Both the position numbers and the translations under genes were made by a program. A model generated the notes under the pieces. The model was given only the letters and a program-made list of their open reading frames with translations, did not search any database and had not been told where the DNA came from. This document shows positions 11,443-46,655 of a DNA stretch of 64,000 nt, in pieces (position 1 is the stretch's first letter; each line of letters begins with the position of its first letter). This stretch comes from Martensiomyces pterosporus (lineage: Eukaryota > Kickxellomycota > Kickxellomycetes > Kickxellales > Kickxellaceae), in NCBI GenBank assembly GCA_025201845.1, contig MU603979.1, forward strand, positions 1 to 64,000, given 5' to 3'.

Positions 11443-12570
11443 GGAGCATCTGACCCATCCTCTGGGTCGGCAGCACTGCTCGAGCTTGCGCGTGGATTTG
11501 GCGAGCTGCAAAAGCTCGGCTGGCGTCCTCGCCGCTCAATCATCCTCGCATCGTGGGACGCCGCAGAGTACGGGATGGTTGGATCGACAGAGTGGGCAGA
11601 GGAGAACAGAGATTGGATTCGCGAAAACGCTGTTGCATATCTCAACGTCGACATTGGCGTCCGTGGGCACAGCATCAAGTTCAAGGCAACACCCAACCTG
11701 AGCACTCTAATCTATGACATTACCAAGAGAGTGCAAAGCCCATATACCAACAGGTCTGTATACGATGTATGGAAGGAAAGAGAGCCACCACGTACAGGAG
11801 TGGTTGGGCTCGCGAATGGCAAAAAGGGCAAACGTCGCAGCCCCTATATTGGGCCGCTAGGGCCTGGAAGCGACCACGCAGCGTTCCTGCACCATCTGGG
11901 GGTTTCTGCACTTGACATGAGATTCGACGGCAGCCCGGGGCTGTACCACTCGAACTATGACAGTTTCAACTGGATAACAACCCAAGTTGACCCAGATTTC
12001 CTGTACCATCGTGCGATCACTCAGATCCTGGGGGCAGCGGCCATTCGTCTGGCAGACGACCCGATCTTGCCGCTGGATGCACAGGCATATGCGCGCGAGA
12101 TCGGTGGCTATGTGAGCGACCTGGACTCGAAGGTGGCTCAAGCTAGCAGCGCCAGCGGCCATAAAGCAGTCTCGCAAAGGGTGCTCCGGCACATGGCTGA
12201 TGCAGCCAACGAGCTTGAAATCAGCGCACGTCGTATTGAGAAGGAGAAGCACCGGCTACGCAAAAAGTACGGCGAAGAGTGCAGCATGGATGGGCGCTAC
12301 CGGTACTCCATGTGCAGTGGCCTGCGCAGCAGCATCAACAGTCGGCTGTACAAGCTCGAGAGGGACTTCATCGACCCTGTGGGCATCCATGGGCGCGAGT
12401 GGTACAAGCATGTGCTCGTGGGTCCAGGGAGATGGAGGTGCTGTGGCGCGCAAACGCTTCCTGCCCTGACCGAGGCCGTTGAAGATGGCAACTGGACGCT
12501 GTTCAAGCGGCTTGAAAAATCCACGGCAGATATCCTGCAGCGCGCAGCCTGGTCTCTACGCGAGCGCTAA
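11443..12570 (+). CDS. M28 family peptidase homologue with Glu-to-Ala at the catalytic position, 5' truncated by gap (copy 2)
   Basis: The frame is open from the first base after the N run (GASDPSSG) to a stop at 12,570: 375 codons. It aligns to copy 1 along its whole length and shares an identical 86-bp start. The zinc ligands visible in the family are kept: Asp of DPSSG, second Glu of the AE pair (11,566-11,568), Asp of NVD (11,650-11,652) and His of LYHSNYD (11,947-11,949). The first Glu of the usual SWDAEE motif, the general base (Glu424 of human enzyme), is Ala here: SWDAAEYG with GCA at 11,563-11,565. In human glutamate carboxypeptidase II, Glu424Ala abolishes catalysis. The frame is otherwise intact, so this could be a pseudoenzyme that still binds zinc and ligand. 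An alternative is an assembly or base-calling error, unlikely since two bases of the codon differ. Confidence 0.85.
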   Translation, partial: GASDPSSGSAALLELARGFGELQKLGWRPRRSIILASWDAAEYGMVGSTEWAEENRDWIRENAVAYLNVDIGVRGHSIKFKATPNLSTLIYDITKRVQSPYTNRSVYDVWKEREPPRTGVVGLANGKKGKRRSPYIGPLGPGSDHAAFLHHLGVSALDMRFDGSPGLYHSNYDSFNWITTQVDPDFLYHRAITQILGAAAIRLADDPILPLDAQAYAREIGGYVSDLDSKVAQASSASGHKAVSQRVLRHMADAANELEISARRIEKEKHRLRKKYGEECSMDGRYRYSMCSGLRSSINSRLYKLERDFIDPVGIHGREWYKHVLVGPGRWRCCGAQTLPALTEAVEDGNWTLFKRLEKSTADILQRAAWSLRER

Positions 12571-17554: not shown

Positions 17555-19708
17555 CTAGTCTTGGCTCTTCCTGACGCTGCCGCGCATCTGCCAGGGCTGC
17601 TTTCTGCTGCCGCTTTTGTCAAACGAGTGTCTGTCGGCGTCGAAGCGTGGCCTGTCGCTGAATGTGCGCTCCCGACCACCAAAGCCGCTCTGGTCGCCGT
17701 GGCGGTCACCGAAGCGGTCACCGTAGCGGTCGTTGCGGCGGTCGTTGCGGCGGTCGCTGAAGCGACTTCCACCACGGCTGCTGCCAAACCCGTCTCCACC
17801 ACGTCTATGGAACCCACCGCGGCGGTCGTTGCCTCCGCGCGGAGCCCTGGGCTTCCTGTCAAGCCCAAGGGATTCACGCAGGAGACGGGGCAGCGGCGGC
17901 TGCGGAGCATCGAAGGGCTTGAGGATCTCTGCCGACGCATCGACGATATCCTGGCCCATTGGGTTGCCAATGAGCTCTGTGTGGCCCTGGTAGAACCCGA
18001 CAAGCGACATGTACGTGTCCTGGACCTTCTCGACATCCGCATACATGGCAGCAGCCTCCCAGCGCGATGCCAGGTGGGAAAGGCCTTCGCCCTCAAAGTT
18101 GGCAATGCTCTCGATGTACTCGGGGGTGTACTTCTCGCTGGCCTTGATGGGCACGTTCTTCAGTTGCTTGAGGAACTTGGTCTCGATGGAGTTGAGCAAA
18201 ATCACGCCCTCGCCCGACTTTCCAGCACGTCCGGTGCGGCCCAAGCGGTGGATGTAGGCCTCGGCTTCGGTAGGGATGCCGACCTGCATAACCATCGACA
18301 CATTGGGGTAGTCGACGCCGCGAGCAGACACGTCGGTGGTGATGAGGATCGAGGTGGTGTTGGCGTCGACCGGCGAGTTGCGGAATCTGTCGGAAATGCG
18401 CGACCGTGCCTCCTGCGTCATCTTGCCGTGGAGCAAAAACACCTCCACACGCTCACCCGCGGGGCGGCTGTTCCTTTGCTGCGGTGCGAACCCGCGCTTG
18501 CCGTAGCCTTTGCTGTTGCGGCGGCGATCGTCGCTGGTCTGCTCGCCCTTCTTCATCAGAGCGCGCATGATCTGGGCATACATGTCGGCGCTCTTTGTGG
18601 TGGGCATGAACACGATTATCTTGCTGCCATGGCCCTCAGCCTTGTTTTTGCTGATGTGTGTCTGCATAGCGTCGCACAGGACAGGGAAGTGCTGCGAGTT
18701 CTCCACAGTAATGTACTCCTGTTTGACGTTGTGGTGGGTGTTGGTCTCGCCCTTCTCGACGCAGTCAACCAGGTCAAACCCGCGGTGGAACACTTCTGGG
18801 GCAAGCTCCTTGATCTTCTTGTCGATGGTGGCCGAAACGAGGAACGTCTGGCGATCGGTAGGGACATTTGCGATGATCTCGCCGATTTCACGGCGGAACC
18901 CCATCTGCAAGAGCACGTCAGCCTCGTCAAACACCAGCAGCTTGGTCTTGGAAGCCAGGTTCTGGAACATCGGCTGGTTCTCCATGAAATCGAGGATTCG
19001 TCCGGGCGTGCCGATGACAATGTCCGAGCGGTTTCTTGCCAGGCTGTTGAGCTGATCCCTGGAGCGCTCGCCGCCAACCAAGGACTGGACGTTCCACCCG
19101 TGGAACTTGACGAGCTTTTCGGCCTCGGTGGCGATCTGCTTGGCCAGCTCACGCGTGGGGCTGACGATAAGGCAGCCGACTGCGCGGCCGTTGGATGCCC
19201 GCGCGGGGTCTTTTTCGTACTCGCGCAGAAGCGTCTCGATGGCAGGCACAAGGAAGGCCGTGGTCTTGCCGGTACCGGTTTTGGCCTTGATCATGATGTC
19301 CCTCTCGATCGGCAGGCGCGAGATGATCTGGTCCTGGACCTTGCTGGCTGTCTTGAACTTCATCAGCCGCTCAATGGCCAGCTTCGTTTTCTGGTGGACT
19401 GTGGTGTAGGACTGGAACGGGACAGGGACATACTCTGGCGCTGCGCCATCACTGGTGCCCTGTTGTTTGGACCCGCTCAGGTCTGTCTTTGGATCGATGG
19501 TCTGCGATTCAAGCTGCTCCACTTGTCTTTGCACGGCTGCCTCGCTTGCCATGAATCTGGAGCACAGGGGAGTCTGGCGGCCAGCTGCCAGCGATGGCAC
19601 CAGCATGCGGCTGCAGATAGGCAGCGCGGTGGCAGCGCTGCTGAAGGCCGGCAGCCTGGCCATGGAGCGCGGGGCGATGCGGGTGGAGAGGGTGATGAAT
19701 CGCTGCAT
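17555..19708 (-). CDS. Mss116-like DEAD-box RNA helicase, probably mitochondrial
   Basis: The ATG at 19,708 gives 717 residues in one exon. The N-terminal 50 residues are rich in Arg, Ser and Ala with no acidic residue, as in a mitochondrial presequence. Helicase motifs are complete: Q-like region before residue 140, AKTGTGKT (142-149), PTRELAK, TPGR, DEAD (261-264), SAT, TTDVSARGVDYP and HRLGRTGRAG. The region after the second RecA domain (TPEYIESIANFEGEGL..) matches the Mss116-type C-terminal extension, and the last 120 residues are an Arg/Gly/Asp-rich RGG tail. Mss116 proteins are RNA chaperones for mitochondrial group I/II intron splicing and translation. The tail contains RNDRRNDRYGDR-type repeats. 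Nearby convergent gene: polyprenol reductase. Confidence 0.9.
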   Translation of the reverse strand: MQRFITLSTRIAPRSMARLPAFSSAATALPICSRMLVPSLAAGRQTPLCSRFMASEAAVQRQVEQLESQTIDPKTDLSGSKQQGTSDGAAPEYVPVPFQSYTTVHQKTKLAIERLMKFKTASKVQDQIISRLPIERDIMIKAKTGTGKTTAFLVPAIETLLREYEKDPARASNGRAVGCLIVSPTRELAKQIATEAEKLVKFHGWNVQSLVGGERSRDQLNSLARNRSDIVIGTPGRILDFMENQPMFQNLASKTKLLVFDEADVLLQMGFRREIGEIIANVPTDRQTFLVSATIDKKIKELAPEVFHRGFDLVDCVEKGETNTHHNVKQEYITVENSQHFPVLCDAMQTHISKNKAEGHGSKIIVFMPTTKSADMYAQIMRALMKKGEQTSDDRRRNSKGYGKRGFAPQQRNSRPAGERVEVFLLHGKMTQEARSRISDRFRNSPVDANTTSILITTDVSARGVDYPNVSMVMQVGIPTEAEAYIHRLGRTGRAGKSGEGVILLNSIETKFLKQLKNVPIKASEKYTPEYIESIANFEGEGLSHLASRWEAAAMYADVEKVQDTYMSLVGFYQGHTELIGNPMGQDIVDASAEILKPFDAPQPPLPRLLRESLGLDRKPRAPRGGNDRRGGFHRRGGDGFGSSRGGSRFSDRRNDRRNDRYGDRFGDRHGDQSGFGGRERTFSDRPRFDADRHSFDKSGSRKQPWQMRGSVRKSQD

Positions 19709-21379
19709 CGCTTGGCTATGTATCTGTGGTGTGTGTTCTCGCTTATGTGGAGCGGTTTCAGTAGTCCAGTATTCGTAGTATCGGCTGCAGCAGTAGTGGT
19801 GGTGGTAGGACGCAAGAAAGAAGGTATACAGGCGGTTGTATTTGCGGCAGGTGCAGATAAGCCAGTGGGCAAGTAGTGTGAACAGCGATAATGCTTGTGG
19901 GGAGCGCGAGAGAGAGCCAAGAGGGGAGGAGTTGCGGCTGTTTCGGCCACGGCCATCAGAGGCACAGAAAACTTTTCGATCCGTGCTGCTTGGCCTGCGC
20001 CTTTGCTTCTCCACCTGCTGAGCTATCCGTAGCCCAAAAATTATGCCTGTAAGCACGGCCAGATCTAACCACGCGCTGATTGCCTGATACTGATGCGGCC
20101 TGTGATCACAGCGCACCCGCATTGTGCGGCACCAATGCCCATGGCGCGGCGCTGTGATTAGCACAGGTGCGATGAGTGCAGCAGGCGGCGCTCTCCAAGC
20201 CGGCGGCGTACAAGCGCAAGGGCACCTGCAGAAATAGCAATGGACATGCTGTTTCCTGTGCGTGGACACCTTGCGCGTGAGGCTCAGCGAAGAGCATCCC
20301 CGCTGCCTCTCTACAGCACCCACTGTCCCTCATTCCTTCGCGCCTCGCTAGGGACAAGCGTCCTCTCGCAGCAGCCGGCTGCTGTGGTGGCTGTGGGGCG
20401 GGGGATTCGTGGCTGCTCCAGGCAAAAGCCCCTTGCGGCCGCAGGAACCGCGTGCTGCCTTCGCACAGACACAGCATGTGCACGCATGTGCGTGCGGCTC
20501 GAGCGATCGAGCCAGCACGTCTTTCTACTGCAGCGAGTCTCTTTGCGCAAGAGCCGCCCCGCCCAGCCAGCAAAGTCAATTTTTCACCGAGCCGGACAGA
20601 GGGCGAGGAGTGGGTTGGGGCGTGCTGGGTGGGCGACCTCAGCCCGGCGACCTCGCCCTCCCTTTTGCCTTTCCCCTTTTTTCTTCTGTGAGCTGGAGTA
20701 GAAACTACATGTTCAAGTATGCTCAAAACAGTGCTCCAGAAAGGACCTGCCCTCTCGCACCACGCTTCTGTACACGCCATTTCTCCGCAAGCTGCTCTCT
20801 CAGCGTTTATAGCACGCGCCTTTCTTCTGCTCTCTCTCTTTCAAAGGAGCCGTCTTCGCTCTTGCACCCGCTTCTCCATTGCCCGTCTCAATTCGGCCTC
20901 TCATCCCGCAGAATCTGCATTTCTGAGGCAAACTGCAGGGACGAGCTAGTGGGCTTGGTGTGCTTCTGGTGTGCGTGTTTTCTGTTGGTAGAGCTCGCGC
21001 ACTCGCAATTCCTGCTTCTTGCGCTTTTCCCACTCTTTTTCAAATTGGCCATTGCTGCCCGCAGGGCGTTGGGCCTTTTTCTTTATTATCGCCGGGAGGG
21101 GGTTTATTTCCATATTCACCCAGAAATAGGACCGGCTGCCTCCGCTACACGCTCTGCTCCTGCTGACTTGCGCTCTTTCCGCCTGTTGTCCCTCTTCGCT
21201 GCCACTTTGCTTTGGTATTCCCTACTACTTTGTGTTCGAGCGCTCCTTTTTCGTTCCTCTCAGTGCCCTCCGTGCCTGCTAGCACTGCTTCGTACACGGT
21301 GAAGAGCGGAGCTGGACGTTAGCAGTCCCATCCATCCTCTTCTGCCGCGTGTCTACTATCTACGCTTATATCCACATAC
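19709..21379. other. intergenic, 1.7 kb, divergent promoters of helicase and INTS2 genes
   Basis: No supported gene. The stretch 20,900-21,379 is strongly pyrimidine-rich on the + strand and probably holds the promoter and leader of INTS2. Open frames here lack family patterns and consistent codon bias. Confidence 0.5.
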
Positions 21380-24300
21380 ATGCCCGACACCCCGCTTCGT
21401 ACGGGTGACGCAGGCTCAGGGGTTGCGGCTGAAATGCCGCCTACGAGAAATTCAATTTCTGATGGCAGCGAGGTTGCTTTGCCTGGCCACAGCCCTACCA
21501 GAGCTGCTCGCCTGGTAGTGGCCACCACTGCTGCTGGTGCTGCTTCCAGCCCCGCTCCGCACATCTATTCCCTCGGTGGTGGTGATGAGGAGGTTTTGGG
21601 CGGAGGCAACATTGTTGTTAATAGCAGCAGCAATAATGCTGGCGGTGGTGGGGCTTTGAATGGCAGTGGCACTGGCGATGGGGTGTGGCAGGCTGCGTCT
21701 GAAAATGCACCTGCATCATCTTCGTCACCTGCCCACGGTGCGCTGTTGCACCGTTCAACGGCTGCCTCCGGGCATCCCAACGGGGCATTTCGAGGATATG
21801 GCAGCGAGGAAGAGCTGCCTCTGGCTCCCTCGTTGGGCGTCCCCTCGCTGCTGCCCTCATCACCCACGTCGTCGAAGCTGGCTGCCGCTACACTGATCCC
21901 GCCATCTCTGCAAAACTCCACGGTCTACGACGTCTTGCTGGCAGGAGGCAATGCTGGCACGTCCAGCGCCTTCGATGCATTCCCGTCCCATGACGGCGGT
22001 GACGACGAGGGTGCGTCCATGGTCAGCGATAGCTGGCCGGTTTCGTCCCCTGATGACTACTTGGCTATTAGCCAAGAGGCTAGGCGCCATTGGCGTGCAA
22101 GGGCAAAGCAGCCCACCAGTGCAGTCGAACAGGTAAAGTTCCCCACTTGTTGCAGCTTCCGCTGAGTGCCTTTGCCGCGGCATTATGAGCTACGCTCGCC
22201 CCCAGGCATGCTGTGCGCTCTTTTGCTGGAGTCGGCGTAGAGCAGAGAAATAAAAGCGGCTCGCTACTGCGTTAATAGCAAACATAGCGAGCAATGATTG
22301 CGTGCCTGGCTTCCAAATGCCAATTTCAATCAAGCCACATGGCAATTGCGCTAATCCCGGCGCCCTTTGCTGGACTTCCCCTTGTGTCTTTCTCTTGTCT
22401 GTAGTCCAGAGCCGATGTCCGCGACTTCATGTCTGGCTCCCCGCGGCGGCGACTTCGACTCGTGCTCATTCAGCTCCACGATCTGATCGACAGGACACCC
22501 CGCATTTATGATATCCTTGAGTGCAAGAAGATGCTCGAGGACTCGGCCGCGTCGCAAGCCCGTCTGGAGCGATCATTAAACTCGCTCTGGAGTGAGCTCA
22601 AAGTGCGATGTTCACTTCTGATCCTCGATAAGGACACCGCACAAGCAGTGGTGCACCAATCGCCATTAGCTGAAGAAGATGAGTGCCCCGACAAGGTGGC
22701 ATTTGTTCAATCTCTGGTGGCCTCCGTGGTGAAGGATGTCATCGAAAATACACCGCTTTTGTGGGAGTCATTTGATGCTGCCGTGCGTGGCCTGGTTTTG
22801 GTGGGGTCAGGCAAGGCGGCGCTGTCCTCCATAGCGCATGCCTCAGGCGCCTATGCCGAAGTTGAGCAGAACTTTGTGAAGGTTTTGCTGGAGGCATATG
22901 CGGTGCTGCCTGATGTGTACAAAAGCGTCATTAGGAGTGGAATAGAGGCCGTTGCCTCTAATGGTGAGCGGGGCGCAAGGCTTGTCACCATAGAGCTTCG
23001 GCGATACAGGGTGCTGCCGGGCGTGCTGTTCAGGACGCTTGCAAAGCACTTGGTCTCCGCGCGGGCTGACGAAGCCAGGCGGTATCTTGACGGCTTGCTG
23101 CACACTGGTGCAGCCGCTTGGATAGGAAGAGCGGCGAATGGCGGGAAGCCGGCGTACTCACAGGTGGGATCTGAAATCCACTCCGCCGTTTACGCGCATT
23201 TTTACCACCTGGGTGCGGAAATGCAGCGGCAGCATGTGCTCTCTTACATACGCGTCGTATCGGGACTCGTAGGGTACCTCCGGATTGAGACACAGAGCGA
23301 GGACTATGCGTTCTTTCAGCGCGCAGCAAAGCTGGCTGCAGCCGATGATATCCAGGCAATGGACGCATGCGCAGCTTTGCTTTTGACGCTGGTAGGGTAC
23401 GGCGCACAGGTCACGGCCCACGATACGCTACAGGCAATCACAGGTATCTCGAGCACTGGCACGGCTAGGCGGATCGACTGCCTACTTGCTCAGCTGCTGA
23501 CAGACCATGTTGAGGAAGTCGGTGCGTTTGTGTCGCGCGCCTTGCACATGGATTTCGCATACCCGAGGGAGCGCCTGTTTTACTTGAAGGACATTATGTC
23601 GCAGTCCAAGATCGCCTACCTCTCGAGCGCAAGCATTGCCCGGCGTCTTGTGCACGTCGGCTCGCCACAGCTAGGGATGGCTGCGTCCGACGCCAGCTCG
23701 GAGCTTTGTCGGGCGGCAGTACTGAGCTTGCTGCAAAACAACGTATTCCAGGACGAAGGCGTTGACGTAAGAGAGTGGTTCACACACGCAGCTAGGTCGC
23801 TCGATACACAGTCTGCTAACAAATTCGGTGCACTGGTAAAGAGCTATGTCGGCGCCATTTTCAGCTCTGCGGCTGTGACGCCAATCCCCGAGAGCATTCT
23901 GTGGAAGGCATTTGCTGCCGAGTCCATCGGCTTCGCGCACGGCCACCAAGTGCCGCCATCCCAGGTGCTCTTTTTGCTGTACATCCTATACTACTGCGAG
24001 CGCCTCCTTGAGCAGCCCAGGAAACCCAGCAGTGCGTTTTCTTCGTTTGGGAAGCGCTCTTCGCTAGGACAAGCCGCACCTGCCAATGTGCCGCAGCCTC
24101 GAAACAACGGCCCCTTTGGGTTTAGCGTGGGCACGCCTGTCAGCAGATCCAGCAGCGTCAGCTCGCCTGCTCCCAACAGGCCGGGCACTGGGCGGTCCAG
24201 CCCATTCGGCGCCGGCTATGGAGCTGCTCGTCGAGGCGAGTACTCGGACCAGCTGCTTGACTCGCTGCCAGTCTCGTGGGTTCTGCAGCATGTCAGCAAC

Positions 24301-26394
24301 AGCGTGGAGTACCAGCAGATCTGGCCTGAGCTCCTCTCGATGGCCACAGCACAGTACCCGGATCAGCTTGAGGTCGTTTCGGTTCTGCAGCGTGAGCTTG
24401 CGGCCAACATCGTCCAGGACGCCTCGCTGCAGCCGTCATGCGAAGAGCCGATGCCAGCCGAGATGGGCACCAGCAGCGGGTTCATTCGGCAGGCACGAAG
24501 CGCGCGCGAGTTTATCGAGGGGAGACTGGCTGCACGGGCAGACGCAATCCAGGCACAGCAGCTGCTGCGCTTTATGGAGGAGTATGTGAAGCTCCCCGTC
24601 GCGGTCCGTATGGGCACCTGCGAGACGCTTACAACAGCCATATGCTCTCTGGCTATCGCGCGGCCGCAGGAGAGCGAGCTGACTGCGATCGTTCGACGAG
24701 TGTGGTACATGGCACATACGCTCAGCCCACACGCGGTCTCTGCTGCGACAATCAACGCATGGCGCGCGGAGTCGGGCGCAGCCAAGCCCAAGCTGATCAC
24801 GCAGGACATTTGGCTCGATCCGCTGGTTGTATTTCGGAGCGACCCGCGCGTGTTCCAATCGCCGGATCTAGCGGACATCCTGCTCACGATCCTCTCGGAG
24901 TTCCTCATCCTGTCGAAGACGAATATGCGGCGGCTGTTCAAGCTGCGGCAGAGGGACAGCGGTGCCCTTAAGCAGCCCCACATCATCGCCATGATCCAGC
25001 TGCAAGAGACCGGTGCAGTGCAGCTGCTGATCGAGATCTCGAGGCTTGTCCGGTCCGAGAGCGTGAGAAGACTCATATTTGGGTTTATTCACGCGCGGTT
25101 CTTGGAGCAAAGGACAATACAGAAGCTGATCCACTTCCAGGCCTACGACATTGCGACAATAAGGGACATGGTCGACTGCGTTCCTTCGATGCATGCCTGC
25201 TCGGAGTTTATCCCGGAGCTGCTGATGCAGTCGTCGCCGCGACTGCAGCACTTTGCTATCGAGCTGGCGGCAGCCATCACGTCCAAGTACCCTATTGTGG
25301 CCAACGAGGGGATGGCAAAGGAGGTCATTTTGCCGCATGTTCAGACGACGCTCGCGCAGATAGCCGGAACGGCTGTCGCGGACCAGCTGGTCATCAGCAA
25401 CGCAATGCTCAGGGCCGTGATTACGATCAACTCGGCGTTTCCGGCGATACACGATGACTGTGCCAAGCTACTGAAGGCGGTACGTGATGTGGCAAACGAT
25501 CGGGCGCATGGGATATTCCAAAACGCCCAGCAGCAGAGTGGCGACAAGCCGGCGCAGTCGGCCAGCCAGCAGCTGAAGCTGAACATTGCGAGGTGGATCG
25601 TGTGCTGCGACCGGGTTATCTCCATCACTGCCGACTCGTCCAAACCAAGCGGCCACGCTGCGTACACTCCCATCGAAGACATCGACGCGGCGGATATGCT
25701 GGCTAGGCTCGAGTCCTCGTTCAGGGCAGAAAAGAAAAGCAGCCACTCGGGACCTGGGAGAAGCGGCTCGCCAGCGCTTCCTGGCCTGGCATCTCAGCAG
25801 CAGCAACAGCAATCTGGCCAGCAGCAGCAGCAGCAGCCTGGTCAGCAGAAGCAGCAGCCGCAGCAGGGCTCGCCACGCCCGCCGATGCCCCCGCCCTTGC
25901 CGCCGTTCCACAACGACCACCAGCAGCAGCAGGGGCAGCAGCAATACGGCGTGCCGCCCAATGTGCAGAAGCGGCCACACAGCTCTATGAGCGGAGAGCG
26001 TAGCCCGCGCCCAGGTCCTCCGCCGCCGCCACCCGGAGCCAAACGCGACGGATCGCCTATGGAATACGGCGGTCGCAGCCGCGGCGCCGGCGGTGGTGTG
26101 CCTCCGCCTCGTGGTGGGCCTCCCGTGCCGGACTCGATGATGATGAACGGGGGAATGATGCAGATGCGCCCTTCTATGCCGCCGCCACACTTGATGGATC
26201 ACGGGCCGGGCGGCGGACCGAACCACGGCGGGTCTAGCAACTTCAGCAAAAAGAGGAACCGCCACCGCAGCCGTGTTCTTGGGAAGGACGGCGGTGGCGG
26301 TGGCGGCAGCAACACAAAGCCTGGCCAGGGACCGAAGCGCAGTAGAAACAGCGGTGCCGGCGGCGGTGATCGGCCACGTAGCAAGGACCGCTAA
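21380..26394 (+). CDS. INTS2: Integrator complex subunit 2 (INTS2) homologue, two exons
   Basis: Exon 1 (21,380-22,132) ends VEQ before GTAAAG; exon 2 (22,405-26,394) starts after CTGTAG with SRADVRDFMSGSPRRR, phase 0, total 1580 residues. From exon 2 on, blocks match INTS2 in order: SPRRRLRLVL (human SPRRLRLVL), LLYILYYCERLL, WLDPLVVFRSDPRVFQSPDL (human IDPLIVLRCDQRVHRCPPL), LIHFQAYD then PSMHACSEFIPELL (human LVHFQGYP, PSMHICLDFIPELI) and INSAFPAIHDD. INTS2 is a scaffold subunit of Integrator, a nuclear complex that cleaves nascent RNA and attenuates RNA polymerase II. Exon 1 is a Gly/Ser/Ala-rich extension of 251 residues not recognisable in animal INTS2; its joining rests on splice sites and phase. 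Residues beyond about 1370 form a poly-Gln, Pro/Gly and basic tail also lacking in animals. Confidence 0.85.
25795..25953 (+). repeat. CAG-rich low-complexity tract encoding poly-Gln
   Basis: Several CAG/CAA runs separated by Pro, Ser and Gly codons encode the Gln-rich part of the INTS2 tail. It is in frame and is followed by Pro-rich then Gly-rich segments. Confidence 0.7.
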
Positions 26395-26576: not shown

Positions 26577-29500
26577 TCACACGGTGCCTTCCTCCTCATC
26601 GGCATGGTATCCATGGCGGCGCATCTCTGCAAGGCGTCTTCTGGCGCCGACAAGGTCCTTCTCGAGCTTGAGGATCATGACCTGCTGCTCCATCTCCTTG
26701 CTCTTGAACTCCAGGTTGCTCATCTTGTCAAAGTCCTCCTGCTGTCTGCTCTCCTCCTCCTTCTCCGTGAGCCGCTGCGTGGCACGCACCAAATGCGCCG
26801 AGGCTTCGGTGACGGCCTTGGCAGCAAGCTCGAGGCGCTCCTGGGTCTTCGAGTACAGCTGCGACTTGACGCGCGAAGCAGCAACGAGCTGCACGGTAGC
26901 CGCGGAGACCTCGCGTGCAGCCACAACAAGGTGCTCGAGCGAAAGCGTGCCCTTGATCACGCCGTCGGCGGTCTCCACCAGGCTGTTGGTGGCCACTGCG
27001 ACCGCCTTGGCAGCAGAGATGAGGCCCTCGGTCCAGCGGTTGTTCTTCTTGTAGAAGGCGGCCTTCGAGCTCGACCCACGGCCCTGCGCAACGATCTCCT
27101 GCTGCGACGCGGTGGCTGCACGAATGAGCTGCGCGATGGCGTTGGTCATGGCCATCGACGAGTCGAGGATGGCGTCGTGCACCTGGATCTGATGGTCGCT
27201 CAGCGACGAGTCGCGCGGCTGGTTGGCCAGCGCTTGCAAGCGCGCAACGGCTTCGTCGATGGCGCGCGCGGCGTTGAGCATCTCGCGCTCGACGAGATCC
27301 GACACGTCCTCGTTGGTGGTGGCAACCGACACCTTGTTCACGTCCTTGGGGATCAGGCTCTCAGCAAGCGCAGTGAGCGTGTTCAGGCTCTGCTGCAGGT
27401 CGCGGTTGGTGTCCAGAATGACGCCAGGCCGCTCGGACGAAAGAAGCCGCTCCATGGCTCCCGACTGGCCCTTGATGAAGAACTGGCGCCCAACCAGCGC
27501 AGCCTGCCTCGATGCCTTGATGATGCGCTCGACAGAGTCCTCGCCGTTGGCCATGCGCGAAATGCCCTTGAGGTTCGCCAGCAGGTGCTCCAGGCCATTG
27601 GACAGCCCAACGGCAGTGGAAATGACCTGGGTCTGGTCGCCGTCGGGGTTGGCGAGGTATCCGGCGAACGAGGCAGCCAGCGAGTTGCCAGAATCATGGA
27701 CCTGCTCGATCGTCGCCAGCACGTGCTCGACGGTGGAAGTCAGGTTGCCGGAGTTGCTTGGGTCGTTGAGGTTGAACACAGCCTCGTCGGTTTTGTCTGC
27801 GCACGACCGCAGAATCGAGTCCAGAATGCGCTTGAGCTTCTGCGCATGCTCAAGCAGAACAGTGTCGAGCTTGCGCTGCAGGTCGCCCTGGTTCCCGTTG
27901 ACCTGGCTCTTCAGCTTGGCCATAGCGACGATGCTGTGGTCCATGCCGGCTTGGAGGACCGCGATCTCATCGTCCTTGGTCTGGCGCAAATGATCGTGCT
28001 CCGCACGCAGGTCGTCATACTGCTTGCGCGCCCTCTCGGCCTCGGCCAGCTTGGCATCGAGCAGGCGCTGGAGCTCGTCCTTTTCGGAATTGAACTTGCT
28101 CAGCATCTGCTGCACCTCCGTGCCCTTGCTGCGGCTCAGCTCGCGCACCCTGTCCTCGCTGTCCTCGAGCTCACGGCGCAGGCGCTCGAGCTCCTCCTGC
28201 TGGCTGTTCTCCATGCGCTGAAGATCCGCGCGCGCCTTGTCGCGCTCGCGCATCATGTCGGCCAGCTCCAGGTTCTTCTTCTTCATGTCGCCTTGGAACT
28301 TCTCCATCTTCAGCATCACCTCGGCGGCGCTGTTTGCCTTGAGGTTGGCCTGCTTGAACTTTGTCAGCAGGTCAAGGTGCTCTTGGCGGAGCTGGGCGTA
28401 CAGCTTGGCCAGGGCCTCGTACTTTTGCCTCCACTGCTCAATCTGCGCCTGCAGCTGGCGGATCAGCTCGTCCTTGCCGGCGTCTTGCTGGAGCTGGAGC
28501 TGCTGGAGCTGCCGGATTTGGTCCTCGAGTGCGGCCACGCGCTTGTTGTACTGGTCGATGGTAAGCTGGTCCCTCTCGTGCTGGCCGCGCATCATGAGCA
28601 GCTGCTGCTCGACCTCCTGCATCTTGCCCTGCACCTGGCGCTGGAGCTGCTCGCGCTGGAGCTGCTCCAGCTGCTGCTGCTCCTTCTCCCTCTGCAGCCG
28701 CTGCATCTCCTCGAACTTGCGCTGCTCCTCGAGCCTCTGCTGCTCCATCTGCTGCTGGAGGCGGACCTGCCTCTGCCTCTCCTCTTCCTCCTGCTGCAAG
28801 CGCAGCTGCTCAGCAGCCCTGCGCTCGGCCTCAAGGTCGATGGTTGGCGAGGGCTGCGGCGGGGACTCTGGGATGGCAGGCGTCGAGACGTTGCGGTCAG
28901 CCTCGGAGTATGGGCGGTCCGGGAGGGGCGGCGGGATGTAGTCGTCGCCGAACAAGTTGGGCGGGTCCTGCGGCAGTCTGGGCACGGTGATAAGGCTGGT
29001 GAGGTAGCGGAGGTTCGAGCACTCGTAGTAGAACTTGCGCAGGGCGTAGTGCTGGCCATTGTACCGTGTGCGCAAGGGCTCCAGCGCCTCCTCCGCGCCA
29101 TCCACCCTTTGGTGCATGGCAATGAGCATGCGAGTGGCAAACTTGTAAATGCCGTAGCTCTCCTCAACAAGCGGTACAAGCGAGGCGATGCGGCACTCGT
29201 TGTTTGACCCGGGCTGGAAGTTGCGGAACACGAGTTTCTGGAACTCATCCAGGCGGTCCTGCAGGCTCATCAGGTCAGCAATGGTCTCGTAGCCCTCATT
29301 GGGGTCGTTGGTTCCGCGCAGACTGACGTACTCCTCGTAGTCGAACATGCCATTGAACTCGGGGTGCAGCCTGTGGTACTCCAGTTTGGCGAGGAGGAAG
29401 TTTATGTACGCGCGAATGAGCACGCTGTAGCTCCTCCATCCCTCGTATGCGCCGCTGCCGATGTTCTGGCCCAGGGACTCGAGGAACGCCGTCTGCGTCA

Positions 29501-29939
29501 GTGCCTCGGGGATGCATACCTGATGGCCCTCGCGGATGACCTTGTGGAGGGAAATGAGCGCCTTGTAGCACTGCACCTCGTCAGCTCTGAGGGGCTGCGA
29601 CTTCAGGCCTTCCCAGATAGGGATCGAGGTCTTGAAGTCCCAGGTGAAAACGATCATCTCTATTGGTGTAGAAGCAGAAACGGCGGTGCTGGCCGCTGGG
29701 GCCATGGCGCCATAGCGTTCAGTGCAAAAGGGCTGCTGCTGCTGCTGCTGCTTTTGGGCTGGTGGCTACAGATTGGATGCAGAGGCAATTGCGACACATG
29801 CAGGCGGGTACGTACTTCTTACATGCTTGCGCTTGGGCGCTGTCTCGTCGATATTTGAGGCCTTTCTAATCGAGGTAATGAGCTCCTGCTCGGCCTTTGC
29901 GCGGTCGCCCACGCGGAGCGAGAAGTGCGAGAGATTCAT
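26577..29939 (-). CDS. SLA2: Sla2/HIP1R-type endocytic actin adaptor, two exons
   Basis: Exon 1 (29,939-29,816) encodes MNLSHFSLRVGD to KRKHVR plus one base, then GTACGT; exon 2 (29,659-26,577) starts after CAATAG and completes KHVRKMIVFTWD, matching the conserved KRKHVRxCIVYTWD of ANTH domains. Total 1068 residues. Domains: ANTH (1-270) for PI(4,5)P2 binding, a Pro-rich linker with PPPLPDRPYSEADR, a long Gln/Glu/Arg coiled coil (about 310-720) and an I/LWEQ (THATCH) actin-binding domain (about 825-1040, with SSSKAAFYKKNNRWTEGL). Sla2 links clathrin-coated pits to actin during endocytosis and polar growth. An earlier donor after CAT would drop three conserved residues, so GTACGT is preferred. 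Convergent with INTS2 (182 bp between stops). Confidence 0.95.
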
Positions 29940-38890: not shown

Positions 38891-40462
38891 GATTGCTGAA
38901 GGGGCTGTCTGCGAGATATCACCTGAATATGCATTGCGAATATTGGTCGGCTCCACGGTTGGTATTATGCTGCTGATGCCGAGTGCGCATGAAGGTGGGT
39001 TTGGTTAGCGACAGGCCAGCAGGCAGATGAGAGATGGCGAGAGATGCAGTCTAACAGAATGGAAGCAATCTTTTTATCGGCAGCATCGAGTTGGAGATTG
39101 TTTTATAATGGCCGGCCGTGTGGCCTGTAATTTAAGCATTTCTCTTCGAGCTGAGGTGGAAAAGGTCCTTGGGCGAGTCTGCATGCATCAGAGAGTTTCA
39201 TGAAAGAAAGATCACGCGGTGTATTGGCACGCTGCTCCCTCCACTGCACCAGTTACATCTGCATGGCACACTAACTACGGGAGCGGAGAAAAGGCATGGT
39301 TTGGGCCAGCGGCATCCAAGTGAGGTGCGCTGTAGCGAGTGGGTTAACGACAGTGGTAGTTAATGGCCGATATGTGTGATGCTAGTGTGCTCTGGTGCTA
39401 GGGGGGAAGGTCTTTTTCTCGCGACAAATGCCTGCGCTCCCAAAGAAACCCCGTACATTGTAGCGCGGTCCTATAGGGCAAATATGCGCAGATGTGTGCC
39501 ACAGGGAAGTCGAAAGTGGTGCGGCCGCATCACTCAGGAGATTACTGTTCTTCGCTACTGAGCGTCTATTTCGTCATTGTTGGGAACCAAAAATAGGGGT
39601 GTTCCATGTAATCATGCCATAGATGGGGCACACACGGACGGGCATGAAGCAGCACCAGCAGAAGAAGGCCCGACGAGGCTCCATGCACAACGACGTGTTA
39701 TAGGCGCCAGCACATGCGGTAGCCCGTCCTATGCTGCTGGCATTCAACGCAGCTGGCGCAGGCGCTGTTCAAAAATGCGTGTATATTTTCAGCATGCCAA
39801 GTCGGCCATTTTGGCAAAGGGGTTTTCCAGATGCTCACCCACTGCAGAGCTATGCGGCCCTCTTGGAAGCGGCCGACCCCGCCAGAGCAGTCCTCAGCAC
39901 TCGCCGGCACAATGGCGCGTCGAAGAGGACGAGTGGTCTCCTGCTGCCAGCATTCTGAACTTTTGCTGCTCGGTAGCATTCAACGCGGCGCCCTGGATAA
40001 GACAGTCAAGCCAATGTCTCTCACCAGCGCTGGCTGGCAAATCAGGGGCGGTGGCAGCAAGAGACGCGTCATCTGAAGGCAGATAGCGCCGACAGATCAC
40101 CAGTGGGTGGCGGTGATCTTGTTGCTCACACCGCCACCTCGCTCACAGCTGCTGGTATCTTGGGCTGCCTACCGTCGTGAGCACACCTTCCCGTGGGAAC
40201 CTCTTCAGAGCTTAGTGCATCATCTTGGCAGCGATAAGGTGCAAATCCACCCTGCCCATCCCCTAGTCCAATGGCCACACCACGCAGACAGGTGGTTAAG
40301 GTGCCCTGCTGACAAACCCAGGATGCATGCTTTTAAGAGCGCCATGGTGCAAGATCCGCTGTCACCTGAACTTTGCACTCTGCACTTATATCACTTGCAA
40401 AGCATCAGCTTGCTTTTCCCAGCACTTCTATTTCTCCAATTCAACAGGACATTGTAAACCGA
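38891..40462. other. intergenic, 1.6 kb, divergent promoters
   Basis: Between the receptor-like gene and 5-oxoprolinase, which diverge. No supported gene. The last 90 bp before 40,463 remain open in the oxoprolinase frame (alternative ATG at 40,373) but look like leader. Confidence 0.5.
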
Positions 40463-43400
40463 ATGAGTGCCGACAGCAGCGACAAGGACAGACAGCTTCC
40501 GTCATCGCTCGATGGCGAGCACAGGGTCCGCGTGTGTATCGATCGCGGCGGGACATTCACCGACTGCGTGGGCGTGTTCCCCGTCGAGCCCACCGCAGAA
40601 AACCCAGCAGGCGAGCGCACTGTGGTCGTCAAGCTGCTCTCCGAGGACCCCGCCCACTACCCCGATGCACCGCGCGAGGGCATCCGGCGCATCCTCGAGC
40701 TTGCCACTGGCAGGCCTCATCCGCGCGACGCTCTGCTGGACACCAGCAACTTGGAGTCGATTCGGATGGGGACCACCGTGGCCACGAATGCCCTGCTCGA
40801 GCGGAAGGGAGAGCCATGCGCGCTGGTCATCACCAAGGGGTTCCGCGACTTGCTCAAGATCGGAAACCAGGCGCGGCCAAGAATCTTCGACCTCTCGATA
40901 ACAAAGCCCGATGTTCTGTACCAGGAGGTGGTCGAGGTCGATGAGAGGGTCACGCTGGCCGGCTACACGATGGACCCCCGAGGCATGTACGCTACCGCTG
41001 ACCTGAGCGATGCTGTCGAGGGCAAGTCGGGCGAGCGCGTCAAGGTGCTTGCGACCCCCGATTGGGAGAAGGTCAGGGAGCAGCTCCAGCAAGTGTACGA
41101 CGGCGGCATCAAGAGCATCGCCGTGTGTCTGCTGCACTCGTACACGTTTGTGGCACACGAGGAGGAAATCGGCAAGATTGCAAGGGGCATCGGGTTCACG
41201 CACATCACGCTGTCGTCAGAGCTCGTTCCTATGATCAAGATCGTGCCTCGCGCGCACTCTGCCACAGCCGACGCCTACCTCACCCCGGGAATCCGCCGCT
41301 ACGTCGATGGCTTTGCCAGTGGGTTTGATTCCGGATTTGGGAGCGTGCGTGTCGACTTTATGCAGTCCGACGGCGGCCTTGCTCCTGTCGACCACTTCTC
41401 GGGTCTCCAGGCTATTCTGTCTGGCCCTGCTGCCGGCGTCGTTGGATATGCAGTGACATCGTTCAGCGAGGCCGAAAGAGTCCCCGTCATTGGCTTTGAC
41501 ATGGGCGGCACGAGCACCGACGTCAGCAGGTTCGACGGTCGGTTCGAGCATGTGTTTGAGACCACCACCGCCGGCGTCACCATCCAGGCACCGCAGCTGG
41601 ACATCAACACCGTGGCTGCTGGCGGAGGCTCGCGCCTGTTCTTCAGGAACGGCCTCATGATGGTCGGCCCAGAGAGCGCAGGCGCACACCCCGGCCCAGC
41701 GTGCTACCGCAAGGGCGGCCCGCTTGCTGTCACCGACGCCAACCTTCTTCTTGGCAGACTGCGCGCCGAGCACTTCCCCAACATCTTTGGCGAGAACGAG
41801 GACCAGCCGCTGGACCTTGACGCCACCCGCACGCTGTTTGCCGAGCTGGCCGGCCGCATCAACGATGGAATTCGTGCGGAGCGCAGGTCCCTCGGCCAGA
41901 GCTACGAGGACAAGTCCGTCGAGGAGATTGCTCTGGGTTTCTTGCAGGTGGCCAACGAGACCATGTGCAGGCCCATCCGCGCACTCACCGAAGCCAAGGG
42001 CCATGATGTGCAGAGGCACGTTCTGGCGTGCTTTGGGGGTGCTGGCGGGCAGCATGCGTGCGCGGTAGCCGAGAACCTGGGCATCCGCCGTGTCTTTGTC
42101 CACCGCCTGGCATCGGTGCTCTCGGCTTATGGACTGGGTCTTGCCGAAGTCGTCAACGAGGAGCAGGCGCCTGCTGCAGACACGTGGACTGCCCAGACCC
42201 AGCCGGCACTCCTATCGCGCCTCGCTGGGCTCGCTGATACATGCCAAGGGAAGCTCACCGAGCAAGGGTTCACCGACAAGCAGATCAGGGTCGACCGGTT
42301 CCTGAACATGCGCTATGACGGAACCGATACCTCTCTGATGGTCCCCGAGCCCGAGGACGGCGACTTTACCGCTCGCTTCGAGTCCATGCACCAGCGCGAG
42401 TTTGGGTTTGTTCTCCATGGCCGCGCAATCATCGTCGACGACTTGCGTGTGCGCTCCATGGGCAGCCTAACTGACGTGAAGTACGGCGAGGTGTACGACG
42501 AGCTGCGCGGGCTGGGGCTGGTGCCGGCGAGCAAGTCTGCTGAACACCCGGCGTTCGTCGAGGAGGTGCCCGTGTACTTCCAGGGCGGGTTCCGCGATAC
42601 AGCCATTTTCAGGCTGGAGAAGCTTGTTCCAGGCGAGGTTGTCCGCGGTCCTGCGATCGTCCTTGACCGCAACAGCACCGTCTTGGTCGAGCCTGGATGG
42701 ACGGCAGCAGTGACCTCGACGCAGCTCGTCCTTGAGCACAGCAACAGCGACAGTGGCAGCCAGGCGGACAGCAGCACTAGCCGTGCGCATGCCTCCACTG
42801 ACCTCGATCCTATCCAGCTCTCTGTGTTTGCTCACCGGTTTATGAGCATCGCCGAGCAGATGGGCCGGACGCTGGAGAAGACCAGCGTCAGCACGAACAT
42901 CAAGGAGCGGCTGGACTTTTCGTGCGCGCTTTTCGACCAGCTAGGAAACCTGGTAGCCAACGCCCCGCACATCCCCGTGCACCTCGGATCGATGTCCCAT
43001 GCTGTGCAGTTCCAGATCCAGCGGTTCTCTGGCGACCTTCACGAGGGCGATGTCATCATGGCCAACCATCCCCAGGCAGGCGGCTCCCACTTGCCCGACA
43101 TCACAGTCATCACTCCTGTGTTCAAGGACGGCAGGGTCATCTTCTTTGTGGCCTCGCGTGGCCACCACGCAGACATTGGCGGGATCTCGCCAGGAAGCAT
43201 GCCGCCCACCTCGAAGGAGCTGTTCCAGGAGGGCGCGAGCATCATGGGCATGAAGATCGTCAAGCAGGGCGAGTTCCAGGAGGGCGAGGTTATCCGCGTC
43301 CTTCTGGAGGAGCCCGCCAAGCACCCTGGGTGCAGTGGCACGCGCAACCTGAAGGACGTCATGTCCGACCTCAAGGCGCAGATCGCAGCCAACCACCGCG

Positions 43401-44410
43401 GAATCGCGCTTGTCCACCAGCTCTGCGCAGAGTACGGTCTTGACGTGGTGCAGGCGTATATGGCGCACATCCAGCGCACCGCAGAACTGGCTGTTCGCTC
43501 GCTGCTCCGCAGCACACGCAAACAGCGGGGCACTGGTCGGCTGGCTGGCAGCGACTTTATGGACGACGGCAGCCAGATCGTGCTCAGCGTCGAGATCGAG
43601 GAGGACGGCAGCGCTCTGTTTGACTTCACTGGAACCACGCCCGAGGTATACGCCAACACCAACGCGCCGCCCTCAGTCACCTACAGCGCCATCATCTACT
43701 GCCTGCGCTGCATGGTGCAGAGCGAGCTTCCTCTCAACCAAGGATGCCTGGCTCCGGTGAAGGTCATCATCCCGGAATACTCCCTCCTGTCGCCCTCGGC
43801 CACCGCAGCCGTGGTGGGCGGCAACGTGCTTACGTCGCAGCGGCTGTGCGACACCATCCTCTCCGCCTTTGGTGCGGCGGCCGCGTCCCAGGGCTGCATG
43901 AACAACCTCACCTTCGGGATGCCCGTCGTGGAGGAGGGAGGCAGGCGGCTGGAGGGCTGGGGATACTACGAGACGATCGCCGGCGGACATGGCGCTGGCC
44001 CTACGTGGGACGGACAGAGCGGCGTGCACACGCACATGACAAACACGCGCATCACCGACCCTGAGATCCTGGAGCGCCGGTACCCCGTCATCCTGCACCA
44101 GTTCTCGCTCCGCGAAAACACAGGCGGCAAGGGGCTCCATACGGGCGGCGATGGCTGTGTGCGCGACATCGAGTTCCTCGAGGCGATGAGTGTATCGCTT
44201 CTGACCGAGCGGCGTGTGTTCTCGCCCCCTGGCTTGGGCGGCGGAGAGAATGGTGCTCGGGGCATCAATCTCTGGAAGCGCGCTGTGAGGGACGGCGAGC
44301 GCGAGTTCCAGGTGCTCAATATGGGCGGAAAGAACACGGTGTTTGTCAGTCCCGGCGACCACATCGTGGTTCTGTCGCCTGGAGGCGGCGGCTACGGATC
44401 CGCTCACTAG
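40463..44410 (+). CDS. 5-oxoprolinase (ATP-hydrolysing)
   Basis: The ATG at 40,463 gives 1315 residues, close to the usual 1290. The first half is hydantoinase/oxoprolinase [18 protein letters not shown] near residue 25 and [16 protein letters not shown] near 345 are phosphate-binding loops of the ASKHA-like ATPase fold, and [13 protein letters not shown] near 530 is typical. The second half (from about 780, [20 protein letters not shown]) is the B domain with [30 protein letters not shown] and [17 protein letters not shown]. The enzyme opens 5-oxoproline to glutamate with ATP in the glutathione cycle, in the cytosol. The two halves are fused, as normal for eukaryotes; a Ser-rich linker ([14 protein letters not shown]) joins them. 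An upstream in-frame ATG at 40,373 would add 30 residues without family similarity. Convergent with the RecQ gene (124 bp). Confidence 0.95.
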
Positions 44411-44534: not shown

Positions 44535-46655
44535 TCATTCGCCTTTGGCGGAGCTGTGCGCTTTTGTCCGTGCCCCTTTGCCACGAGCCGACATCTCCGG
44601 CAGGGAGTCGGCGGCAAACTCGATGTTGAGCGGACCAAGCCCATCGGTCTGATCCACAGTGCGGCCAACGACGAACCGGTACGGCTCAGCAATATCCAGG
44701 TAGGCGTTTGTTGTGTACCCGCTATGGCTGAACTTTTCCGCTAGCACGCCCTTAGCAACAAGCTTGCTGACAATGTATCCGCAGTCGTGCTGCTGCATCG
44801 GGATAAACTCTGCCTGGTTGCTTTTCGCAAGAGAAGCAATCCTTGGCACCTTCTCGAGTCCGTGGCCACGGTAGTACTTGTACAGCTTGGCAAGAGTGAT
44901 GCGCTCCTCGCCGGCGGCATGGATGATGTTTATAATCGATATCGCGCTGGATGCGCAGTCAACCGCCACAACCTCTGGCTTGCTAAGACAAAAGTCGCAC
45001 ACGCCGCATGGCTCCTCTTCCTCTCTGCCATCCGCCGGGCCTGGCGCTGCGCCGTGGTATCCATCGGCATCCACCGGCTTATTCAGCGACGACTGCAGGG
45101 CCCACAGGTGGGCTGGTGCGTCCTGCAGATACGACTGAAGAATCAGTTTCCGGCACCTGTGGCGGCACTCCGCATAGTTGATCATCGCGCGGGCCATCCT
45201 AAGACCCTCCACCGACTGCCCCTCAAAGCCCCAGCTCGCCAGCTTGGACGAATCCATCGATCGGTAGAACAGGACGCAGTCAGCGGGCTCCCCATCTCGC
45301 CCAGCTCGCCCAGACTCCTGGTAGTAGTTTTCAAGCGTCTTTGGCGCCGTGTGGTGGGCGACAAACCGAACGTCCAGCGAATTGATGCCCATGCCAAATG
45401 CATTGGTGGCCACAATGATCTGGACCCTTCCCGTCCTCCACAGCTGGTGCAGCTGCTCCTTCTTCTCCCGCTCCAAGTTGCCGTAGTACAGCCCAGCCGA
45501 AAACCTCTTTACCGGGTTCTCGCAAAGCAGGCACGTCATCTCGTATGCATCATTTCTAGTCGCGCAATATATAATGCCCCGGTCCCTCGAGTGGTGCCTG
45601 ACTATCCACTCTATGACCTGCATCCGCTGGCTTGACAAGCTGTCAACCTTACGCACGACGCTGTAGTGGAGGTTCTTGCGCCACAGCGGGGACGTATAGA
45701 CGATCGCGCTGGGTCTTTCCACGCCGCCCTCGACTCCCAGGATTCTACGCACGCTCGTCAGCACGCGAGGGGGGCAGGTTGCCGAGAGCGCTAGTAGAGG
45801 GACATCGGGGAACATGTACTTGAGCATCCCAAGCTTGTTGTAGTCAGGCCGGAAGTCATTGCCGTACTCGCTGGCGCAGTGGCACTCGTCGATGACGATG
45901 CGCGAAAGCCGCCCAGCCGCATGCACCTTTTCAATTAGCGCAATGAACTGCTTGCCCGAGACAATTTTTTCCGGCGAGACATAGAGCAGCCGCAGCCCAC
46001 CAGGAGTCGCAGGCGCATTCGTCGCGGAAGCCCCACTGTCTGTACGCCGGCGCTTTGCCGTTGGGATCATCTGCTTTATCTTGTCTTTGATCTCCGCCGG
46101 GTTCTTTGACTCTGACGTGAATGCCTCGGCATCGATGCCCAGCTCCTTGAGGTGGAACACCTGGTCGTCCATCAGCGCAATGAGCGGCGACACAACCAGC
46201 GTCAGTCCAGGCGAAACGAGTGCAGGCAGCTGGTAGCAGAGCGACTTGCCCCCGCCTGTGGGCATAATCACCACAACGTCACGTCCGTCCAAAGTAGCGT
46301 TGATGACAGTCTCCTGGTTGCCCCTAAACGAGGAAAGTTTAAACACGCTATGCAGCAGCTCCTGGACCCTTGGCGACCAGGCAAAGAACGGTCCCTCGTA
46401 CCCAACCTTTAGCTTCTCGTTGTCTCTGGATTGCGCTTTCCGTGCTGTTTCGTCAATCTCGCTGTTCAGCGCTTCAATGCCCTTGGCCAGCTCTCGCCGC
46501 TTTCGACCCAGCTTTGCTATTTGTCTGTCTACCTCAGCTAGCTCCCTTTGGAGTTGCTGCTTCCTGGCGAGTGCATCGCTGCTTGCTGTGCCCTCGTCAG
46601 GCGCAAAGTCGCTCTCATCGTCGCTGTCGCTGATATACATCGCCGCCGATACCAT
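44535..46655 (-). CDS. RecQ-family DNA helicase, RECQ1-like
   Basis: The ATG at 46,655 gives 706 residues in one exon. A coiled-coil N-terminus (about 28-75) precedes the helicase core, as in human RECQ1: MPTGGGKS (131-138), VVSPLIALMDDQ, DECH (256-259), SATCPP, FGMGINSLDVRFVAHH and ENYYQESGRAGRDG. A zinc-binding part follows with CRHRC and CGVCDFC, then a winged-helix-like region (ITLAKLYKYYRGHGLEK). No HRDC domain is present. RecQ1-type enzymes unwind 3'-tailed DNA and resolve replication intermediates in the nucleus. Oddities: the aromatic-rich loop reads ASEYGNDFRPDY instead of SQWGHDFRPxY, and a 20-residue Ala/Thr/Pro insert (about 200-219) sits in the first RecA domain. It diverges from the RCC1-like gene over 276 bp. 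Confidence 0.92.
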   Translation of the reverse strand: MVSAAMYISDSDDESDFAPDEGTASSDALARKQQLQRELAEVDRQIAKLGRKRRELAKGIEALNSEIDETARKAQSRDNEKLKVGYEGPFFAWSPRVQELLHSVFKLSSFRGNQETVINATLDGRDVVVIMPTGGGKSLCYQLPALVSPGLTLVVSPLIALMDDQVFHLKELGIDAEAFTSESKNPAEIKDKIKQMIPTAKRRRTDSGASATNAPATPGGLRLLYVSPEKIVSGKQFIALIEKVHAAGRLSRIVIDECHCASEYGNDFRPDYNKLGMLKYMFPDVPLLALSATCPPRVLTSVRRILGVEGGVERPSAIVYTSPLWRKNLHYSVVRKVDSLSSQRMQVIEWIVRHHSRDRGIIYCATRNDAYEMTCLLCENPVKRFSAGLYYGNLEREKKEQLHQLWRTGRVQIIVATNAFGMGINSLDVRFVAHHTAPKTLENYYQESGRAGRDGEPADCVLFYRSMDSSKLASWGFEGQSVEGLRMARAMINYAECRHRCRKLILQSYLQDAPAHLWALQSSLNKPVDADGYHGAAPGPADGREEEEPCGVCDFCLSKPEVVAVDCASSAISIINIIHAAGEERITLAKLYKYYRGHGLEKVPRIASLAKSNQAEFIPMQQHDCGYIVSKLVAKGVLAEKFSHSGYTTNAYLDIAEPYRFVVGRTVDQTDGLGPLNIEFAADSLPEMSARGKGARTKAHSSAKGE

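What the first reader, a model, noticed from the sequence alone, without database searches (positions are those of the whole stretch)
22405..26394. Fungal Integrator subunit INTS2
Seen: ordered matches to animal INTS2 (SPRRRLRLVL, WLDPLVVFRSDPRVFQSP, LIHFQAYD, PSMHACSEFIPELL). Known: Integrator is generally described as absent from yeasts and most Dikarya. Inferred: this organism keeps at least part of Integrator, so an early-diverging fungus could use it for RNA polymerase II attenuation or snRNA 3' processing.
Basis: partly seen in the sequence, partly recalled or inferred. Interest (0 to 1): 0.75.

Follow-up and report, generated by a model that had tools for sequence, protein, structure and literature searches.

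The report
Fungal Integrator subunit INTS2
This gene of an early-diverging fungus encodes subunit 2 of Integrator, an RNA-cutting and transcription-stopping machine best known from animals, and the same genome carries six more Integrator subunits, including the RNA-cutting enzyme, so this fungal lineage appears to have kept much of the machine.

Summary
Window 22405-26394 (+) is exon 2 of a two-exon gene (21380-22132 plus 22405-26394). The spliced product equals, letter for letter, a 1580-aa database protein of Martensiomyces pterosporus (Kickxellales), called 'hypothetical protein' there. It matches Pfam INTS2 (197 bits, E 5e-58). Human INTS2 is its only PDB sequence match, and its predicted structure matches human INTS2 chains over the whole length, well above other HEAT-repeat proteins.

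The same 17.4-Mb genome encodes INTS4, INTS6, INTS7, INTS9, INTS11 and, on weaker sequence evidence backed by fold, INTS8; CPSF73 and CPSF100 are separate genes. INTS11 keeps the catalytic motifs I could check by pattern; INTS9 lacks them, as an inactive partner should.

INTS1 (three models) and INTS5 (one model) gave no credible hit, which does not show absence. INTS3, 10, 12-15 and snRNA 3' boxes were not searched (cap reached).

Of 33 INTS2 proteins listed, 14 already bear the Integrator subunit 2 name: a new member of a known kind. Ten searches of the held library showed no study of Integrator in these fungi; one microsporidian genome paper lists an 'Integrator complex subunit 4' in a table. 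Function is inferred, not shown.

The parts
21380..22132 (+). Exon 1 of the INTS2 gene (251 codons): mostly low-complexity, with a short conserved end (DSWPVSSPDDY...HWRARAKQ...EQ)
   Evidence: Spliced with exon 2 it reproduces P0002 letter for letter. Of six other relatives printed, five (P0003, P0006, P0010, P0011, P0015) have a similar stretch before the exon-2 start; P0004 begins at the exon-2 Met
22133..22404 (+). Intron, 272 bases, GTAAAG...CTGTAG
   Evidence: Sequence read; frame and splice identity to P0002
22405..26394 (+). Exon 2: INTS2 body and stop codon (1329 codons plus stop); ATG of the long open frame at 22429
24238..25494 (+). Pfam PF14750 INTS2 match (profile positions 631-1045), holding the WLDPL, HFQAYD and PSMHACSEFIPELL motifs
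22405..25557 (+). Helical-repeat body (1051 aa) whose predicted structure matches human INTS2 chains end to end
25558..26391 (+). Q/P/G-rich, basic C-terminal tail, outside the Pfam match and not modelled
   Evidence: Translation; a few K and R columns near the end are nearly invariant in A1

Best explanation
The gene encodes the INTS2 orthologue of Martensiomyces pterosporus, working as a scaffold of a retained fungal Integrator. By analogy with the human Integrator-PP2A structures, INTS2 would sit in the backbone (with INTS7 and an INTS1-like partner) and hold together an INTS4-INTS9-INTS11 endonuclease and an INTS6/INTS8-PP2A phosphatase. That assembly would cut nascent RNA and dephosphorylate RNA polymerase II to end transcription early and/or to form snRNA 3' ends. 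Shown: gene structure, INTS2 identity, co-occurrence of INTS4, 6, 7, 8, 9 and 11, and retained INTS11 catalytic motifs. Inferred: that the products form one complex, that it carries PP2A, and what RNAs it acts on.
Against: INTS1 gave nothing with PF12432 and PF22929 and only adaptin/coatomer proteins with PF22928. INTS5_C gave nothing. In human structures these two are scaffold subunits (recalled), so the complex could be altered, or those subunits too diverged to see. INTS8 has no INTS8 match in PDB by sequence, even with a 16-sequence profile, its hmmscan score is just under the cut-off, and its fold match has low TM-scores (0.26-0.27) and large rmsd (33-38 A). Other Pfam HEAT families outscore INTS4_C in the INTS4 protein. 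No expression, interaction or RNA data.
Confidence: 0.87

Rival explanations
1. A reduced or remodelled Integrator: Kickxellales lost INTS1 and INTS5, and the remaining subunits form a smaller endonuclease/phosphatase complex with INTS2-INTS7 as the only backbone.
For: Four Pfam models for INTS1/INTS5 gave no credible hit while models for INTS2, 4 (C-terminal), 6, 7 and 8 did.
Against: The INTS4 8-helix model also missed although INTS4 is present at 241 bits, so a missed model does not show absence. For the empty searches the tool itself says the answer does not show absence.
Confidence: 0.15
2. A generic HEAT-repeat protein (karyopherin, SF3B1-like or other) that resembles INTS2 by repeat structure only.
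For: Karyopherins and SF3B1 follow INTS2 in the fold lists, as expected for any alpha-solenoid.
Against: No other Pfam family at E 0.01. INTS2 is the only PDB sequence match at E 1. INTS2 TM-scores are more than twice those of ranks 6-50.
Confidence: 0.01
3. Contamination of the assembly with DNA of an animal or another organism.
For: INTS2 is expected in animals.
Against: Identical to an annotated M. pterosporus protein on a contig of the same length, 117925 bases. The 20 relatives aligned are 43-68% identical to it and come from related fungal genera. Clear divergence from human.
Confidence: 0.01

Closest known systems
Human INTS2 (PDB 7cun chain B; Pfam PF14750)
   Same: Whole-length alpha-solenoid fold; colinear sequence matches in three stretches, strongest around the DPL(I/V)V.R.D.RV and PSMH.C.(D/E)FIPEL motifs.
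   Different: Low identity (16-19% over the structural alignments). Fungal low-complexity N-terminal exon and Q/P/G-rich basic tail. The model aligns from human residue 123-155 on, depending on the chain.
INTS2 of Coemansia, Linderina, Kickxella, Dipsacomyces (NCBI)
   Same: 20 of them aligned here are 43-68% identical to this protein; 14 of the 33 proteins listed already bear the name Integrator complex subunit 2 (one as 'domain-containing protein').
   Different: Nothing essential; this species' own copy is called hypothetical protein.
Human Integrator-PP2A complex (PDB 7cun, 8rbx and others)
   Same: INTS2, 4, 6, 7, 8, 9 and 11 have counterparts in the fungal genome.
   Different: INTS1 and INTS5 not recognised with the models tried; INTS3, 10, 12, 13, 14 and 15 not searched; PP2A not searched.
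CPSF73/CPSF100 mRNA 3'-end endonuclease
   Same: Same beta-CASP superfamily as INTS11/INTS9; both also present here.
   Different: INTS11 and INTS9 are separate genes in this genome and score far better against their own human counterparts.

Membership tests
INTS2 (PF14750) | Significant profile match over the curated cut-off | tested here: met
   197 bits against cut-off 25
INTS2 (PF14750) | Sequence match to INTS2 rather than to another solved protein | tested here: met
   7cun_B is the only match at E 1 and, with the profile, at E 0.1
INTS2 (PF14750) | Whole-length INTS2 fold, including the N-terminal half that Pfam does not match | tested here: met
Integrator complex | Endonuclease INTS11 with catalytic motifs and a degenerate INTS9 partner | tested here: met
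   the acidic motif A was not caught by my pattern in any of the four beta-CASP proteins, but is aligned in INTS11
Integrator complex | INTS4 | tested here: met
   241 bits to human INTS4, four of four listed sequences INTS4; INTS4_C 33.7 and 29.8 bits, cut-off 27. General HEAT families, PDS5 (31 bits) and Vac14 also pass their cut-offs
Integrator complex | INTS6 | tested here: met
   PF25462 90 bits; PDB INTS6 163.8 bits
Integrator complex | INTS7 | tested here: met
   PF24436 147 bits; PDB INTS7 93.5 bits
Integrator complex | INTS8 | tested here: met
   PF25756 28.1 bits in the genome search (over cut-off), 26.1 in hmmscan (cut-off 27); precomputed PF25756 on the species' own protein P0035 and on 8 of 25 listed; matched at E 0.01 in 12 of 16; fold ranks 1-5 INTS8. 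Against: no INTS8 match in PDB by sequence, low TM 0.26-0.27
Integrator complex | INTS1 | tested here: inconclusive
   PF12432 and PF22929 nothing; PF22928 four sub-cut-off places, all in proteins with Adaptin_N at 335-488 bits; in two of these PF22928 passes its cut-off in hmmscan (31.5 and 27.7 bits, no single stretch), taken as repeat cross-match
Integrator complex | INTS5 | tested here: inconclusive
   PF14838 nothing; PF14837 not tried
Integrator complex | INTS3, 10, 12, 13, 14, 15 | not tested
Integrator complex | snRNA genes with a 3' box | not tested
Integrator complex | Physical assembly with PP2A and RNA polymerase II | not testable with these tools
   Needs purification

The most novel reading that the evidence does not exclude
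A two-enzyme Integrator (INTS11 endonuclease plus INTS6/INTS8-PP2A) was present in the ancestor of fungi and animals and still works in Kickxellales, possibly with a scaffold (INTS1/INTS5) so changed or reduced that animal-based models no longer see it. It would offer a fungal setting for Integrator attenuation, and a test of whether Integrator works where NELF pausing is not expected (the usual absence of NELF from fungi is recalled, not tested).
Probability: 0.45. Interest if true: 0.65.

Novelty: new member of a known kind. Interest (0 to 1): 0.5.

Why it matters
Integrator is studied mostly in animals, and the model yeasts do without it (both recalled). A fungal lineage that keeps its endonuclease, part of its backbone and the subunits that carry PP2A in animals would mean, if inherited vertically (no tree was built here), that the machine predates the split of animals and fungi and was lost later in some fungi. 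It makes it possible to ask what the ancestral job was (snRNA ends, attenuation, or both) in a compact 17-Mb genome.

Tried and rejected
INTS1: three models tried. The four sub-cut-off PF22928 places (L016-L019) were followed up: all four proteins carry Adaptin_N at 335-488 bits and one also Coatamer_beta_C. In hmmscan PF22928 does pass its cut-off of 27 in two of them (31.5 and 27.7 bits, no single stretch passing); with Adaptin_N at 335 and 406 bits in the same proteins I take this as repeat cross-match and dropped all four. INTS5_C and INTS4_8HBD gave nothing; INTS4 then turned up with INTS4_C. Beta-Casp showed only CPSF73, INTS11 and CPSF100; INTS9 appeared with Lactamase_B_6. The INTS8 candidate alone or as a profile matched no INTS8 chain in PDB by sequence, only designed TPR proteins and one oxidoreductase at weak E; fold settled it. 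INTS6's C-terminal INTS3-binding domain (PF15300, recalled) was not among Pfam matches at E 1.

Two searches for INTS2 relatives returned only kickxellalean genera. The tool needs shared 5-residue words, so this says nothing about other fungi or animals. In one search only 7993 candidates were scored, only 7992.

Literature: ten searches; two searches listed only 25 of 108 and 10 of 990 papers. Passages were read by 'find' in PMC7471841, PMC4362643, PMC6368637, PMC2942849, PMC9971887, PMC3614468, PMC10584915, PMC7285336 and PMC12931235; PMC10406608 held none of the four terms. The rest were seen as listings only. In those passages PMC3614468 lists an 'Integrator complex subunit 4' among duplicated genes of a microsporidian genome table, PMC7285336 an 'integrator complex subunit' in Phytophthora proteomics, and PMC2942849 names Int11 as a beta-CASP family member; none treats Integrator in Kickxellales. 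Two papers on Integrator-PP2A were not held.

Contamination and a generic HEAT protein were considered and rejected (see rivals). snRNA 3' boxes were left unsearched for lack of genome searches.

Full report
What is there. The long open frame at 22429-26394 (+) is real: 1321 codons, against a longest stop-free stretch of 318 codons in 300 mononucleotide shuffles of the exon. It is exon 2 of a two-exon gene. Exon 1 is 21380-22132, the intron is 22133-22404 (GTAAAG...CTGTAG), and the spliced translation equals database protein P0002, 'hypothetical protein GQ54DRAFT_164073 [Martensiomyces pterosporus]', 1580 aa, letter for letter. The contig lengths agree too (117925 bases). M. pterosporus is a fungus of the order Kickxellales.

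Relatives. Two searches listed 30 and 33 proteins, all from Martensiomyces, Dipsacomyces, Linderina, Kickxella and Coemansia (that these genera all belong to Kickxellales is recalled, save for Martensiomyces). 14 of the 33 are named Integrator complex subunit 2 by the source, one of them as 'domain-containing protein'. The tool requires shared 5-residue words, so it cannot tell whether other fungi have INTS2.

The rest of Integrator in the same genome. I used all 12 genome searches. They were: PF14750 INTS2 (found); PF10996 Beta-Casp (three loci); PF12432 INTS1 (nothing); PF22929 INTS1 (nothing); PF16661 Lactamase_B_6 (four loci); PF14838 INTS5_C (nothing); PF24436 INTS7_N (found); PF24493 INTS4_8HBD (nothing); PF25756 INTS8 (found, weak); PF25462 INTS6 (found); PF22928 INTS1_R4 (four sub-cut-off places, all in adaptin/coatomer proteins); PF25458 INTS4_C (found).

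INTS1_R4 in more detail. In the genome search none of the four places passed the cut-off (18.9-23.8 bits). In hmmscan of the four proteins PF22928 passes 27 bits in two (31.5 and 27.7), without any single passing stretch, beside Adaptin_N at 335 and 406 bits. I read this as cross-match between helical repeats, not as INTS1.

Cleavage module. The four beta-CASP proteins sort cleanly. L002 has the CPSF73-100 C-terminal domain and is CPSF73. L004 is CPSF100, 427 bits to human CPSF2 and with CPSF100_C. L003/L013 is INTS11, 749 bits to human INTS11 against 345 to CPSF73. L008/L014 is INTS9, 127.8 bits to human INTS9, best other chain 28.1; Pfam shows only Lactamase_B_6 for it over a cut-off. INTS11 matches my patterns for HxHxDH, GHVLG, GD, SFSAH and VHG; INTS9 matches none of them, CPSF100 two. 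A pattern I wrote for the further acidic motif 'A' matched none of the four proteins, so it tested nothing; the aligned INTS11 stretch there reads 'litettygtt' against human 'litestyatt'. INTS4 (L021) matches human INTS4 with 241 bits, best over residues 245-645, and the four sequences listed at E 0.1 are all INTS4. In Pfam it passes INTS4_C (29.8 bits, cut-off 27), but general HEAT families score higher and PDS5 and Vac14 also pass; the PDB result decides.

How it most likely works. Shown: an INTS2 gene and six partner genes with the expected domain make-up, including an endonuclease with intact checked motifs beside a degenerate partner. Inferred, from human Integrator-PP2A structures (entry titles seen) and general knowledge: INTS2 is a backbone scaffold that joins the cutting side (INTS4-9-11) to the PP2A side (INTS6, INTS8), and the complex ends unproductive transcription and/or makes snRNA 3' ends. 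Not settled: INTS1 and INTS5. The miss of INTS4_8HBD, in a genome where INTS4 is plainly present, shows how little such a miss means.

Known or new. The protein family is known, and kickxellalean copies already carry the name in NCBI. Ten literature searches of the held library showed no study of Integrator in these fungi ('Integrator' with 'Kickxellales': 0 papers). A table in a microsporidian genome paper, PMC3614468, lists an 'Integrator complex subunit 4' (passage seen), so single Integrator names in fungal relatives are in print. Subscription journals and preprints are mostly not in that library. So: a new member of a known kind, in a lineage where the set of subunits deserves an account.

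Noticed in passing
window 26577-29705 (-): ANTH + I/LWEQ protein (Sla2/HIP1R-like endocytic adaptor, name recalled) in one open frame immediately downstream, on the opposite strand.
   Followed up: partly
window 17555-20323 (-): DEAD-box helicase on the opposite strand upstream.
   Followed up: partly
window 40373-44407 (+): 5-oxoprolinase-like protein (Hydantoinase_A and Hydantoinase_B domains, 703 bits for B) in one open frame.
   Followed up: no
window 49292-51964 (-), 52147-54534 (+), 44538-46655 (-), 11575-12567 (+), 62354-63967 (-): In that order: ClpB/Hsp104-type AAA protein; CRAL-TRIO plus RhoGAP protein; DEAD-box helicase; M28 peptidase with transferrin-receptor-like dimerisation domain; PRT6 C-terminal domain. 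Four of the ten open frames scanned had no family.
   Followed up: no
L012:3656-6742 (-) (G000 contig C90): INTS8 of Kickxellales is not named Integrator in any of the 25 proteins listed; fold and a weak Pfam match identify it.
   Followed up: yes
L021:1883-5083 (+) (G000 contig C25), L008:100-2193 (-) (contig C14): INTS4 and INTS9 candidates each lie in one long open frame; INTS9 is not found by the Beta-Casp model and needed Lactamase_B_6.
   Followed up: yes
literature, PMC3614468 and PMC7285336: A microsporidian genome table lists duplicated 'Integrator complex subunit 4' genes and a Phytophthora proteome lists an integrator complex subunit (passages); whether these names are right was not checked.
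   Followed up: partly
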